Of a DNA stretch of 64,000 nt, positions 2,387-24,469 are shown piece by piece. The translations under genes were made by a program, and so were the position numbers. Each line of letters starts with the position of its first letter. Positions within the stretch are counted from its first letter, which is position 1. The stretch spans positions 1 to 64,000 of the forward strand of contig JACZJN010000128.1 in assembly GCA_014860565.1 (NCBI GenBank), written 5' to 3'. This DNA is from Bacteroidota bacterium (GTDB lineage Bacteria; Bacteroidota; Ignavibacteria; SZUA-365). A model generated the notes under the pieces. The model ran no database searches. It worked only from the letters and a program-made list of their open reading frames with translations, and was not told the origin of the DNA.

Positions 2387-3865
2387 ATGAAGACATTCAT
2401 GGTCTATGTCGCACTGTTCCTTTTCCCAACTGCTGCCATTCGCGCACAGGATATCGAAGCAGAGCTATCGGGTAACACTGCCGCGAACGGATTCACGGTT
2501 AAAAGCTATGCCGGTACCCCTCTATTCACGATTCGGGGTGATGGAAAAGTCGGAGTCGGCCTCCTCAATCCAGATGTTTCGTTGCATGTTGCGGGACAAG
2601 TTAAGATCACCGGCGGGACGCCCGGCGCGGGTAAGGTACTGACCTCCGATGCCCTTGGCCTGGCGACGTGGACGATGCTTTCATCGCTGCCTCCGAGTGG
2701 GCCAGCCTCCGGTGATCTCACGGGGACGTTTCCGGATCCAAAGATAGCCAACAGCGCTGTCACCTCGGCCAAGATTGCCAGCGGGGCGGTGACACCGACA
2801 AAGATCAGCTCCACAGGAGCGGTGTCCGGCCAGGTGCTCAAGTACGACGGAACGAACGTCGTGTGGGCGACACCCGCCACAGGTGGAAGCACGCTCGACC
2901 AAGCATACGACAATGGCGGTGCAGGCTTGGGAAGGATGATCCATGCAGATGCAGGGGCGGTCGTTGTATCAGGCGTTGATGGTTTCCTCGTGACAGGTGG
3001 AAGCAGCTCACAGGGCGCAATTCCGACAAGCGGAGCCGGAGCACGGATGATGTGGTATCCAAAGAAACGTGCGTTCCGGGCTGGATACGTGAATGGACAA
3101 CACTGGGATGATGTAAACATCGGCGACTACTCTACCGCGATGGGTTGGAGTACGATCGCCAGCGGTACCTGCTCCACCGCCTTGGGAGTCTACACGACAG
3201 CCAGCGGTAATTATTCCACCGCGTTGGGATATTATGCAAGCACCGGAGGTCAATCAGGTTCAATTGCGATGGGAGATGCAAGTACGACCAATGTCCTTAC
3301 GAATACTAATGCGAACCAATGGCGGGTGCGATTCGCAGGAGGTATTGGCTTCTTCACTAATGCGGCCACAACCACGGGCGTCTACATGAATGGGAATACA
3401 AGTGGTTGGTCGAATTACTGCGACCGGAACAAAAAAGAGAATTTCACAGCTCTTGATGGAGAATCCATCCTTGCACGACTTCGCGTCATCCCGGTCCTTG
3501 AATGGAACTACATTGGTGCTGCCCCGACGGTCCGCTACATTGGCCCCATGGCGCAGGACTTCTGGCAGGCTTTCCATCTTGGTGGGACGGACAGCTTGGG
3601 CATTAACAGCATCTCAATTGACGGTGTGAACATGGCGGCGATACAGGCCCTGGAAAAACGAACGGCAACACTGCAAACCATGAGTGAGGAGATTGCCTTG
3701 CTCAGAGAAAGGATCACCACACTTGAAGTCGCGCAGGCACACTACGCGACTCAGGCCGCCGAAATCCAGCAGCTCAGGAACGACGTCACCGCACTCAAAG
3801 CGCTCCTCACACAACAATCCCCTCCAAGAAACGGTATCCATGCATTGCTCGATCCGGGGAAGTGA
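2387..3865 (+). CDS. Secreted fibre-like protein with S74 chaperone-of-endosialidase domain
   Basis: A 492-residue exported protein with a signal peptide (about 1-20, ending AAIRA). The middle carries Gly/Ala/Ser-rich repeats and, at ~250-300, YadA-head-like motifs (YSTAMGW, CSTALGV, YSTALGY) of trimeric surface fibres. The C-terminus is an S74 intramolecular chaperone: CDRNKKENF, GPMAQDF and GVNMAAIQALEKR leading into a coiled coil (~405-480). In the family a Ser-Asp-x-x-x-Lys motif self-cleaves after trimerisation. Here the Ser position is Cys345 with Lys350 kept, so cleavage is uncertain. It is likely a surface trimer, not a phage tail, since no phage genes are nearby. One base separates it from the next gene. 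Confidence 0.85.
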   Translation: MKTFMVYVALFLFPTAAIRAQDIEAELSGNTAANGFTVKSYAGTPLFTIRGDGKVGVGLLNPDVSLHVAGQVKITGGTPGAGKVLTSDALGLATWTMLSSLPPSGPASGDLTGTFPDPKIANSAVTSAKIASGAVTPTKISSTGAVSGQVLKYDGTNVVWATPATGGSTLDQAYDNGGAGLGRMIHADAGAVVVSGVDGFLVTGGSSSQGAIPTSGAGARMMWYPKKRAFRAGYVNGQHWDDVNIGDYSTAMGWSTIASGTCSTALGVYTTASGNYSTALGYYASTGGQSGSIAMGDASTTNVLTNTNANQWRVRFAGGIGFFTNAATTTGVYMNGNTSGWSNYCDRNKKENFTALDGESILARLRVIPVLEWNYIGAAPTVRYIGPMAQDFWQAFHLGGTDSLGINSISIDGVNMAAIQALEKRTATLQTMSEEIALLRERITTLEVAQAHYATQAAEIQQLRNDVTALKALLTQQSPPRNGIHALLDPGK

Positions 3866-20692: not shown

Positions 20693-20711
20693 GGCGCGTC
20701 AGAATTCTCAG

Positions 20712-20751
20712 GCGAGTACGAGAGGACATTCCTTTCGTACTCGCTTTTTTT
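20712..20751 (+). terminator. Rho-independent terminator of sucC
   Basis: GCGAGTACGA (20712-20721) pairs perfectly with TCGTACTCGC (20735-20744), followed by TTTTTTT. Confidence 0.93.
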
Positions 20752-20853: not shown

Positions 20854-22083
20854 ATGCGTACAGCTTTTCAGATTTTCACGCTCATACTCCTGATGACATT
20901 CAATGCCGTTTCCCAACCCGGCTGGTTCCAGGTGCGCAGTGAAGGTGACCCCCTGCTCTTTTCCATCGACTTGTTCGACGCAGATCATATCACGGCGGTA
21001 GGGTCGAATGGACTTATTCTCCAGTCGGACAATGGCGGCGCCAGCTGGCGGACCGTCAGTTCCGCAGCCAGCGAAAATCTTCGACGCGTGCGCTGGTTCA
21101 GTCCGTCGCTCGGCATACTGCTCGGCAACGGGGGCATGGCCCTCAAATCCACGGATGGCGGCGCCACATGGCAACAGCTCACCACCGGTACCAGCGTTGT
21201 CCTGTTCGATGTTCACTTCTTCGACGAAAACAACTGGCTCGTCATCGGGCAGGCTGCGTTCGAGATGACCACGACTGACGGTGGCGCGACATGGGATTAC
21301 CAGGGTTCAGGCACGAACAACTTCAACGAGATTGCCTTCAAGGGAGATCTGGGTATTATCGTCGGAAACAAAGGCACGATCCGCACGACGGAAGACGGTG
21401 GTAGCCACTGGCGAGATCGCAGCGGTGCCACGGACTTCGAGTTGACCAGCATCTCCATCGGTGACGACAGCACGGCGATCGCCGTGGGCGCCAACGGCAC
21501 AATCCTGCGCACGGAGGACAAGGGCCGAAAGTGGACGGTAGTGTTCGCATCGATTCCCCTCTCCACCTTCCGGCTCAGCGGAGTCCGTCACCTCACGCGC
21601 GAACGAGTGGTTCTCGCCGGGTACGGCGGCCTCCTTCTCTGGTCAACCGACGCCGGATTGAGCTGGTATCCTCAGGAGAGCAATACGCAGAAGAACCTTG
21701 AAGCGCTTTCGTTCATCGATAGCAAGAACGGTGTTGCGGCAGGTTGGGACGGAACGATCATGCGCACCACCACTGGAGGCACCCTCGCCGTGACGCGGCT
21801 TGCAGGCAGTCTTCCGGCGAGCGTCCGCGTTCAGGAGTCCTGGCCGAACCCGATTGCGCACAATGGCCTTGCGCACGTACGCATCGAACTGCCCCACAGC
21901 GGTACCGCGCGTCTGCGCGTCTATGACCTGCTGGGGCGCGAACGCAAAACCATTCTCTCAGACGCGATGGATGCGGGCAGCTACACCGTAAGCTGGGACG
22001 CATCGCTGCCGAAGGGTGTCTACCTGTACCGGCTCGAACAGAACGGTTTGTCGCAGGTCCGAAAGTTTACCGTGGTGGATTGA
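20854..22083 (+). CDS. Ycf48-like beta-propeller protein with T9SS sorting domain
   Basis: A 409-residue exported protein. After a signal peptide (ending FNAVS) come about seven repeats of the Asp-box type (SDNGGASWRTV, STDGGATWQQL, TTDGGATWDY, TEDGGSHWRD, TEDKGRKWTV, STDAGLSWY), which build a Ycf48/BNR propeller. The last ~75 residues are a type IX sorting domain (SWPNPIAHNGLAHVRIEL, LRVYDLLGRERK, LPKGVYLYRLEQNG). It should be displayed on the cell surface or released. No catalytic residues are evident. The propeller may bind glycans or other proteins. Confidence 0.9.
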   Translation: MRTAFQIFTLILLMTFNAVSQPGWFQVRSEGDPLLFSIDLFDADHITAVGSNGLILQSDNGGASWRTVSSAASENLRRVRWFSPSLGILLGNGGMALKSTDGGATWQQLTTGTSVVLFDVHFFDENNWLVIGQAAFEMTTTDGGATWDYQGSGTNNFNEIAFKGDLGIIVGNKGTIRTTEDGGSHWRDRSGATDFELTSISIGDDSTAIAVGANGTILRTEDKGRKWTVVFASIPLSTFRLSGVRHLTRERVVLAGYGGLLLWSTDAGLSWYPQESNTQKNLEALSFIDSKNGVAAGWDGTIMRTTTGGTLAVTRLAGSLPASVRVQESWPNPIAHNGLAHVRIELPHSGTARLRVYDLLGRERKTILSDAMDAGSYTVSWDASLPKGVYLYRLEQNGLSQVRKFTVVD

Positions 22084-22110
22084 AAAAGAAATTCTGACAT
22101 TACCCTTATC

Positions 22111-22166
22111 ATCGCCGAACATGTCGGGGCTACCTTTGTACAAAAGGAGGTCCAATGTTCGGCGAT
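22111..22166 (+). promoter_or_regulatory. Nested hairpins over the start of the 36-residue ORF
   Basis: ATCGCCGAACAT (22111-22122) is perfectly complementary to ATGTTCGGCGAT (22155-22166), which holds the start codon and first four codons of the small ORF. Inside the loop CCTTT (22133-22137) can pair with AAAAGG (one bulge), masking part of the AAGGAGG ribosome site. The RNA could switch translation off, for example by temperature or a trans-acting factor. This is structure read by eye only. Confidence 0.55.
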
Positions 22167-22265
22167 AATGTTACTCCTCTGTTGATACTTCTCGTAGCGA
22201 CGCATATCGCGTCCGGTACGATGATCTATTTAGGACTCCGGGCTTTGCGGCGTGCCCGGCGTTAA
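22155..22265 (+). CDS. 36-residue single-pass membrane protein
   Basis: A small ORF behind a near-perfect AAAGGAGG site, four bases from the ATG. The product has one hydrophobic helix (about 7-27, TPLLILLVATHIASGTMIYL) and a basic tail (RALRRARR), so the C-terminus should face the cytoplasm. I know no family for it. It lies 71 bases after the propeller gene on the same strand and its stop overlaps the convergent hydrolase by four bases. The ribosome site and membrane-like composition support it, and the hairpin over its start suggests controlled translation. Confidence 0.55.
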   Translation: MFGDNVTPLLILLVATHIASGTMIYLGLRALRRARR

Positions 22266-23098
22266 TTCAGTGCGTCCCTGAAAGCGCGGACACTCTGTTT
22301 GAGCACCGTCTTGAATGCGGGGGTGGCTCCCTCGAACGGGTGCTTTATCCCGAACGTGTGATCGGTATTCGGAATGGGATAGAATCTGCTGCGCGAATCA
22401 TCCGCTGCCACTGCGATACGACGCCCTTCTTCGATGGAGACTGAAACGTCCTGTTCCCCGTGCAGGATCAGCAGTGGCTGTTTCATGCGGGCAGCCGCGG
22501 CGGGGATGTCGAAGCGCGTGATATGGGACTCGAGATCATCGAGCATACCGGCATCCATCGGCATCATTTGACCTGTGCGCGCATTTTCTATTTCCAGCCT
22601 GCCTGTTTTCCTCCACATCGCGCGCGTTTTCTTGCCCCAGCGCATGAAATCCGCAACTCCGGCCCAGCTTGCCACTGCGCCTATACGCTCGTCTTCACTC
22701 GCGTAAACAATGGCGATGCCCCCTCCGAGCGAATGGCCGACGAGTCCGATTTGCGAAGTATCGCAACTCTCAGACAGAAGGCCGCCTGCGGTGATGGCAT
22801 CGACCAGATCTCCCAGATCGTCCAATTCCCTGCTGATGGTATTATGCGCGAAACGATCCAGCGCAGTGAAATCCATGAAGGAATCCTCGATGCCATTCAG
22901 CGAGAAGTTGAACCGCAGGGCGACGAAGCCCTTCAGCGCAAAATGTTCGGCCGCATACGGGAAGCCTCCCCAGTCCTTGAACCCCTTGAAACCATGGCAT
23001 ATGATCACGACGGGAGCGTTCTCGATCTCTGCCGGGAGATGAATATCGCCACGGATCAGGTCGCGGTGGCGGTTGACGATGTGGAAGGAAGTGCTCAT
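22262..23098 (-). CDS. Alpha/beta-hydrolase, dienelactone-hydrolase/acyl-peptidase-like
   Basis: A 278-residue cytosolic serine hydrolase. The nucleophile elbow GHSLGGG carries Ser123. The acid and histidine are likely in LHGEQDVSVS and PNTDHTFG. The oxyanion region is VVIICHGFKGFKDWGGFPYAA. The order and length match uncharacterised esterase/lipase-like hydrolases (YqiA/Fsh/DLH groups); the substrate is unknown. It is divergent from the glycosyltransferase gene across 73 bases. Confidence 0.85.
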   Translation of the reverse strand: MSTSFHIVNRHRDLIRGDIHLPAEIENAPVVIICHGFKGFKDWGGFPYAAEHFALKGFVALRFNFSLNGIEDSFMDFTALDRFAHNTISRELDDLGDLVDAITAGGLLSESCDTSQIGLVGHSLGGGIAIVYASEDERIGAVASWAGVADFMRWGKKTRAMWRKTGRLEIENARTGQMMPMDAGMLDDLESHITRFDIPAAAARMKQPLLILHGEQDVSVSIEEGRRIAVAADDSRSRFYPIPNTDHTFGIKHPFEGATPAFKTVLKQSVRAFRDALN

Positions 23099-24323: not shown

Positions 24324-24469
24324 ATCGATTGCCAACGGCATGTCATTCGTTGTAGGGCGGATTCATGGATCGATTGTCGACGGAATATCGTTTGTTGTAG
24401 GGCGGATTCATGAATCGATTGTCGACGGAATGTCGTTCGTTGTAGGGCGGATTCATGAATCCGCCCTAC
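24307..24469. repeat. Three 45-base direct repeats ending in a perfect 28-base palindrome
   Basis: Three units of 45 bases (24307-24351, 24352-24396, 24397-24441) each begin GTAGGGCGGATT(T/C)ATG and differ at a few positions. They end in a perfect 28-base palindrome (24442-24469) made of GTAGGGCGGATTCATG and its complement. Both convergent genes stop inside it. The family is shared with 12335-12379. It looks like a REP/MITE-type palindrome that has been tandemly amplified. Confidence 0.93.

What the first reader, a model, noticed from the sequence alone, without database searches (positions are those of the whole stretch)
22111..22265. 36-residue membrane ORF whose start codon and ribosome site are buried in nested hairpins
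A perfect 12-base complement of the first codons lies upstream, and the loop contains a second partial pairing over AAGGAGG. A small ORF with an excellent ribosome site and a membrane helix is itself easy to miss. The arrangement fits a translational switch (thermosensor, small RNA target or attenuator).
Basis: partly seen in the sequence, partly recalled or inferred. Interest (0 to 1): 0.55.

Follow-up and report, generated by a model that had tools for sequence, protein, structure and literature searches.

The report
Small membrane protein with read-through lock
A tiny, previously unnamed membrane protein gene in a little-known group of bacteria has its start signal folded into a strong, evolutionarily kept RNA hairpin, most likely so that the protein is not made by accident from messages that run in from the gene next door.

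Summary
The 36-codon ORF (22155-22265) codes for a conserved one-helix membrane protein: it is found, with the same neighbours, in 8 of the 16 held genomes of its order, and its codons are under purifying selection in the 4 same-genus genomes. The 12-bp stem holding the start codon is kept in all 4 of these, and a re-sequenced stem of the same plan is in a second genus (G004). In the home genome no other of 222 gene starts has a perfect start-codon stem longer than 7 bp. In 3 more distant genomes the ORF remains but its hairpin is no better than chance. What is kept in all 8 is an ungapped, promoter-like block (22093-22138) containing the left arm. A message started there would lack the left arm, and no terminator was found between the upstream gene and the ORF. 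Best reading: a read-through lock, as known for phage T4 gene e and B. subtilis sigG. Messages running in from the YCF48-like gene fold and are not translated; the gene's own message is free. Promoter and start site are inferred, not measured. The protein's role is unknown; a toxin-like membrane peptide is possible.

The parts
22155..22265 (+). small ORF, 36 codons plus stop: acidic N-terminus, one hydrophobic stretch (about residues 8-28), Arg-rich C-terminus
   Evidence: ORF; 64-78% identity in 3 same-genus genomes; dN below dS in all 6 pairs; divergent relatives at the same place in G004, G005, G011, G012
22111..22122 (+). left arm of the outer stem, ATCGCCGAACAT; overlaps the promoter-like block
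   Evidence: its CGCCGAACATG is identical in all 4 same-genus genomes
22155..22166 (+). right arm of the outer stem: start codon and codons 2-4, ATGTTCGGCGAT
   Evidence: no synonymous change in codons 2-4 among 4 genomes
22126..22153 (+). inner part of the hairpin: middle stem GGG.CU / AG.UCC and apical stem CCUUU / AAAGG that pairs the front of the Shine-Dalgarno sequence
22144..22150 (+). Shine-Dalgarno sequence AAGGAGG, 4 bases before the start codon
   Evidence: sequence
22093..22138 (+). ungapped promoter-like block: TCTGAC, CTTAT, GAACA (22117-22121), N9, TACCTTTG (22131-22138)
   Evidence: ungapped in 8 genomes over these columns; shuffles reaching the score 0, 0, 0 and 1 of 2000 for the four genomes outside the genus; the promoter role is inferred
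20854..22083 (+). upstream gene, YCF48-like (BNR repeats) with a weak T9SS C-terminal sorting domain; stop 71 bases before the small ORF; no terminator-like site found in between
22262..23098 (-). convergent alpha/beta hydrolase; its end overlaps the end of the small ORF, so a message running past its stop would be antisense to the small ORF

Best explanation
The locus is an independent small membrane-protein gene with its own promoter, and the hairpin is a read-through lock. The promoter-like block 22093-22138 would start a short message between the two arms (about 22129 or 22143, depending on which boxes are the core promoter). That message lacks the left arm, so the Shine-Dalgarno sequence and start codon are less paired. 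RNA that runs in from the YCF48-like gene carries both arms, folds the start codon into a 12-bp stem, and is not translated. Shown: the conserved ORF, the stem, its replacement in a second genus, the ungapped upstream block, and the absence of a recognised terminator in between. Inferred: that the block is a promoter, where the message starts, that read-through occurs, and that folding blocks translation.
For: ORF kept in frame in the 3 other same-genus genomes, with dN 0.14-0.29 against dS 0.85-2.7. Hairpin z -4.6 to -5.9 in the 4 same-genus genomes and -3.9 in G004. G004 keeps the plan with a changed stem: of 12 outer pairs, 3 are changed on both sides and still paired, 2 are unpaired. A perfect start-codon stem of 12 bp against a maximum of 7 in 222 starts. 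The 50-base block aligns ungapped at the same offset in all 8 ORF-bearing genomes: 0, 0, 0 and 1 of 2000 shuffles for G004, G005, G011, G012. Because the block is kept where the hairpin is not (G005, G011, G012), the hairpin does not explain it. The left arm is inside the block. No terminator-like site between 22083 and 22155, while the gene before the YCF48-like gene has a strong one at 20710-20746. Predicted mean openness of -15..+3 rises when the left arm is removed, in 8 of 8 genomes with a 26-base or 20-base leader (0.29 to 0.37 and 0.33 in G000; 0.23 to 0.66 and 0.52 in G002) and in 7 of 8 with a 16-base leader, the exception being G005. In G012, the one ORF-bearing locus where I read terminator-like hairpins between the genes (by eye), no strong hairpin is seen. 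Precedents read as passages: T4 gene e (PMC3014915), B. subtilis sigG (PMC5942855).
Against: No RNA data. The block matches no consensus well: in this genome TTGACA is enriched upstream of genes (17 against 4-5 in controls) and TTGAC-N17-20-TAnnnT too (8 against 0-1), but TAnnTTTG is not (8 against 3-10); the block has CTGACA-N17-GAACAT or TACCTTTG instead. A model of the block finds no other convincing site in the 8 genomes, so no regulon supports it. G005 and G011 have the block and no evident terminator but no hairpin above chance. In G000 itself the predicted gain in openness is small. With the 4 same-genus sequences, covariation is only modest: 3 pairs changed on both sides, reached by 41 of 500 shuffles, and the +1 slide also gives 3.
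Confidence: 0.5

Rival explanations
1. Leader switch: the message starts upstream of the left arm, always carries the hairpin, and translation is opened by a signal (temperature, small RNA, protein, processing).
For: Hairpin selected in 5 genomes; nested stem also over the Shine-Dalgarno sequence.
Against: Left arm lies in the promoter-like block. No Rfam match in 21950-22350 up to E 5. Hairpin not above chance in 3 of 8 ORF-bearing genomes. Stem very stable (-30.9 kcal/mol).
Confidence: 0.25
2. Type I toxin-like gene: a toxic membrane peptide kept untranslated by mRNA structure and by antisense RNA, for example from the convergent hydrolase message.
For: Under 60 aa in 6 of 8, one helix, positive C-terminus, as described for membrane type I toxins (PMC8309996 passages); structured inactive mRNAs are typical there (PMC11228461 abstract and opening text); convergent overlap. 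Compatible with the best explanation.
Against: No antitoxin RNA identified. One strong match per genome; kept by descent at one locus. No toxicity data. Many harmless small membrane proteins look alike.
Confidence: 0.12
3. DNA or 3'-end element: the inverted repeat is an operator, or the 3'-end hairpin of the YCF48-like message, and the overlap with the start codon is incidental.
For: Relatives without the ORF have terminator-like hairpins or a palindrome at this spot (G007, G008, G009, read by eye). The block could bind an activator.
Against: No T-run after the stem. The right arm tracks the start codon exactly in 5 genomes. GAACA is kept in 6 of 8, but its inverted partner TGTTC only in the genus.
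Confidence: 0.1

Closest known systems
Phage T4 gene e (lysozyme) translation-initiation hairpin, also soc, 49, I-TevI
   Same: Shine-Dalgarno and/or start codon in a helix whose 5' strand lies in the promoter region; long upstream-started transcripts fold, own transcripts lack the 5' strand (PMC3014915 and PMC2988022, passages)
   Different: Here a bacterial chromosome and a small membrane protein; promoter, start site and effect are not measured; the promoter type is not a T4 late promoter
Bacillus subtilis sigG read-through hairpin
   Same: Large hairpin proposed to block translation of RNA reading in from the upstream spoIIG operon and unable to form in the gene's own transcript (PMC5942855, passages)
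   Different: Unrelated gene, phylum and sequence
Membrane-associated type I toxins (TisB, AapA1 and others)
   Same: Small hydrophobic single-helix peptide with structured translation start; positive C-terminus (PMC8309996 passages, PMC11228461 abstract and opening text)
   Different: No antitoxin RNA or toxicity shown; no accepted Pfam or NCBIfam family match

Membership tests
Read-through lock (T4 gene e / sigG type) | Start codon or Shine-Dalgarno in a stable stem in the long RNA | tested here: met
Read-through lock (T4 gene e / sigG type) | 5' strand of the stem lies within or upstream of the gene's own promoter, so the own RNA lacks it | tested here: inconclusive
   ungapped promoter-like block contains the left arm, but it fits no promoter consensus of this genome well
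Read-through lock (T4 gene e / sigG type) | Upstream transcription runs into the gene | tested here: inconclusive
   no terminator-like site between the genes; no RNA data
Read-through lock (T4 gene e / sigG type) | Folded RNA is translated less than the short RNA | not testable with these tools
   only predicted openness
Type I toxin-antitoxin | Small hydrophobic peptide with one predicted helix | tested here: met
   (hydropathy only)
Type I toxin-antitoxin | Antisense antitoxin RNA | not tested
   only the convergent gene is seen
Type I toxin-antitoxin | Toxicity on over-production | not testable with these tools
   needs an experiment
Known RNA thermometer / riboswitch families (Rfam 15) | Covariance-model match | tested here: not met
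   only a tRNA in 64 kb; none up to E 5 in 21950-22350

The most novel reading that the evidence does not exclude
A new family of toxin-like small membrane proteins, outside the known small-protein families, found so far only in this order of Ignavibacteria-class bacteria, kept at one chromosomal site and protected from accidental translation by a hairpin built into its own promoter. The stem has been replaced by a different one in a sister genus while the plan stayed, which would be a phage-T4-like read-through lock evolved in a bacterial chromosome of this phylum.
Probability: 0.25. Interest if true: 0.65.

Novelty: new member of a known kind. Interest (0 to 1): 0.45.

Why it matters
It adds an unnamed, conserved small protein that standard length cut-offs would miss, and a testable case in which translation depends on where a message starts. 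If the read-through lock is confirmed, it suggests that stray expression of this peptide is harmful, and it gives a sequence signature (start-codon stem whose left arm lies in the promoter) for finding other genes guarded this way.

Tried and rejected
Other genomic sites: TCGCCGAACATG occurs 19 times in 4 same-genus genomes. I read the context of the sites outside the locus on 13 further loci: none shows the facing arm, and they look like coding sequence, so the element is not a dispersed repeat.

Upstream mini-ORF from the ATG in the left arm: read by eye from the sequences; spacing to the real start is 34, 34, 36 and 34 bases and the frame differs in G002, so not conserved; rejected.

Bacteroidetes-type promoter TAnnTTTG as a genome-wide signal: not enriched (8 forward against 10, 3 and 8 in three controls; 5 against 7 and 2 in the smaller set). 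GAACAT-N9-AnnTTTG sites: 9 in 7 genomes, 4 of them at this locus; the other 5 lie in or at the ends of large ORFs; no regulon. A sequence model of the block finds each of the 8 loci at E 1.1e-5 or better and nothing else below E 0.03.

Hairpins in G005, G011, G012 looked like Shine-Dalgarno locks by eye, but z is 0.0, -1.2 and -1.1, and stems as long (G-U allowed) occur at 40, 20 and 85 of 179 background starts. I dropped them as evidence. In one search the overlap rule (4 bases) excludes the window's own 12-bp stem, so that table is not a fair test for G000 or G004.

Homology search: PetL (Pfam, E 0.024, below its cut-off, 1 of 7 members), Mem_trans (E 0.11, 1 of 7) and SecE (NCBIfam, E 0.027, 1 of 7) taken as chance. 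In 391 genomes of the class, 7 have a match at E 1.4e-5 or better, all in this order; the next best is 0.006. In 395 genomes of the phylum there is one further weak hit (G488, E 5.9e-4, 26 residues), not accepted. G004's member was found by position, not by the profile.

Not used: structure prediction (a 36-residue helix would not decide anything); viral collections.

Full report
What is there. Window 22155-22265 (+) is a 36-codon ORF with AAGGAGG four bases before its ATG. It lies 71 bases after the stop of a YCF48-like (BNR-repeat) gene with a weak T9SS sorting domain (20854-22083 +), and its end overlaps the end of a convergent alpha/beta hydrolase (22262-23098 -). ATCGCCGAACAT (22111-22122) is the exact complement of ATGTTCGGCGAT (22155-22166). 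Between them, a middle stem and a CCUUU/AAAGG stem reach into the Shine-Dalgarno sequence. The fold is -30.9 kcal/mol, z -6.6, 0 of 200 shuffles as good.

Is it more than chance in this genome? I called genes in 695 kb of the genome (window plus 33 stretches) and kept 222 starts with a good Shine-Dalgarno match. The longest perfect Watson-Crick stem containing the whole start codon was 7 bp in that set and 12 bp here. By total folding energy of -50..+18, 1 of 222 is more stable; in the window alone it ranks first of 50. Low start-codon openness by itself is not rare: the six lowest of 97 background starts are at 0.03 or less, the same range as here (0.05).

Is the ORF real? A protein search of 15 genomes of the order found it in all 3 other same-genus genomes (E 6e-12 to 1.5e-8) and gave nothing convincing by itself in the other 12. 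Identity is 78, 64 and 67%. In all 6 pairs of the four genomes dN (0.14-0.29) is below dS (0.85-2.7), and differences fall mostly on third positions. The C-terminus varies: 36, 36, 41 and, in G002, 81 residues, running into the hydrolase gene's opposite strand.

Wider family. The gene before, the ORF and the hydrolase keep the same order in the four same-genus genomes (G003's contig ends inside the hydrolase). Reading the same gap in 12 genomes of the family and one of a sister family gave divergent versions in G005, G011, G004 and G012: one hydrophobic stretch, acidic residues before it, and basic residues after it (in G012 acidic residues follow as well). The profile search over 391 genomes of the class confirmed G005, G011 (both in the query alignment) and G012 (not in it, E 1.4e-5); G004 rests on position and a weak alignment. 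So 8 of 16 held genomes of the order have it. Of the other 8, four have other sequence in the same gap (read by eye: G007 and G009 a terminator-like hairpin, G008 a palindrome, G010 a short gap), G006 has no hydrolase found next to it in the fetched stretch, and three (G013-G015) were tested only by protein and profile search. A named record of one ORF-less relative is PKTF01000413.1, 'Ignavibacteria bacterium isolate BM516'. No accepted Pfam or NCBIfam family match.

Is the hairpin selected? In the genus the left arm is non-coding, yet CGCCGAACATG is identical in 4 of 4 while its surroundings vary. Codons 2-4 show no synonymous change there, while later codons do. Folding z-scores for -60..+18 are -5.1, -5.9, -4.6 and -5.5. 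In G002 the outermost pair changes on both sides (A-U to U-A), with Asp4 becoming Glu. On the MAFFT alignment (which puts G003 one base out of register in the middle stem) 90% of cells pair; 3 pairs change on both sides, which 41 of 500 shuffles reach, and the +1 slide also gives 3. That is modest. The stronger case is G004, of another genus: AGGUCGaACAUG / CAUGUcCGACCU. Of 12 outer pairs in the register anchored on GAACAT and the start codon, 10 form and 3 of these differ on both sides from the genus; beyond CAU/AUG, 7 of 9 form, p about 0.001 at Watson-Crick odds or 0.02 with G-U allowed (z -3.9). In G005, G011 and G012 the hairpins are not above chance (z 0.0, -1.2, -1.1). The lock is therefore a property of two genera, not of the whole family.

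What is kept in all 8. Aligning upstream regions shows an ungapped block: TCTnAC, then CTCAT, then GAACA, then xAnnTTTG (TTGC in G002 and G011) at fixed distances, each with a few departures. Scored with a matrix from the four same-genus genomes, the best ungapped match in each of the four other genomes falls at the same offset; shuffles reaching the score: 0, 0, 0 and 1 of 2000. Fixed spacing without a common structure points to a DNA element, most simply a promoter. Two readings: CTGACA-N17-GAACAT (the TTGACA and TTGAC-N17-20-TAnnnT patterns are enriched in this genome), start about 22129; or the -7 box TAnnTTTG, with TAnnTTGY as a described variant in Flavobacterium (PMC9723704, passages), start about 22143. 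TAnnTTTG is not enriched in this genome, which counts against the second. In both, the left arm (22111-22122) is not transcribed.

Mechanism. The upstream gene has no terminator-like site before the ORF, so RNA running past its end would carry both arms. Full-length RNA is predicted at -34.3 kcal/mol (-70..+40), RNA from -24 at -9.7; mean openness of -15..+3 rises when the left arm is removed in 8 of 8 genomes with 26-base and 20-base leaders and in 7 of 8 with a 16-base leader, slightly in G000 (0.29 to 0.33-0.41) and more in G001, G002 and G004. [quoted passage not shown] subtilis sigG (PMC5942855, passages). In those cases the guarded product is harmful out of time (lysozyme; sigma-G). A harmful membrane peptide would fit, and membrane type I toxins are similar in size and charge (PMC8309996 passages), but toxicity and an antitoxin RNA are untested. 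Literature searches; one search combined Ignavibacteria with small-protein, toxin-antitoxin and RNA-structure terms (3 of 4 needed), and none of the 10 listed of 35 papers describes this locus by its title and abstract start.

Verdict. Observation confirmed; interpretation narrowed from a generic switch to a probable read-through lock at even odds; a new protein family in a known kind of arrangement.

Noticed in passing
L071 (G008), gap after the YCF48-like gene: A long near-perfect palindrome (ATTATGCAGAAAGTGCATATTTCC and its complement around a short loop) sits where relatives have the small ORF or a terminator.
   Followed up: no
window 20710-20746: Strong intrinsic terminator (17 pairs then a T run) after the succinyl-CoA ligase beta-subunit-like gene, so the YCF48-like gene is probably its own unit.
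   Followed up: no
window about 24343-24456: Repeated peptide-like unit (NPPYNERHSVDNR...) on the minus strand near the end of the glycosyltransferase gene, suggesting tandem DNA repeats.
   Followed up: no
L133 upstream of the gene at 3360 (G000 C88): TTGACATGAACTC repeated three times upstream of a gene.
   Followed up: no
G000 sample of 695 kb (window, L122-L134, L167-L186): TTGACA and TTGAC-N17-20-TAnnnT are enriched upstream of genes while the Bacteroidetes TAnnTTTG box is not, hinting that this group's main promoters resemble the E. coli type.
   Followed up: partly
L144 (G000 C139) and L139 (G001 C15): GAACATAAGTGANCGAACTTTG is shared by two species at the end of a regulator-like gene, just before a short lipoprotein-like ORF.
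   Followed up: no
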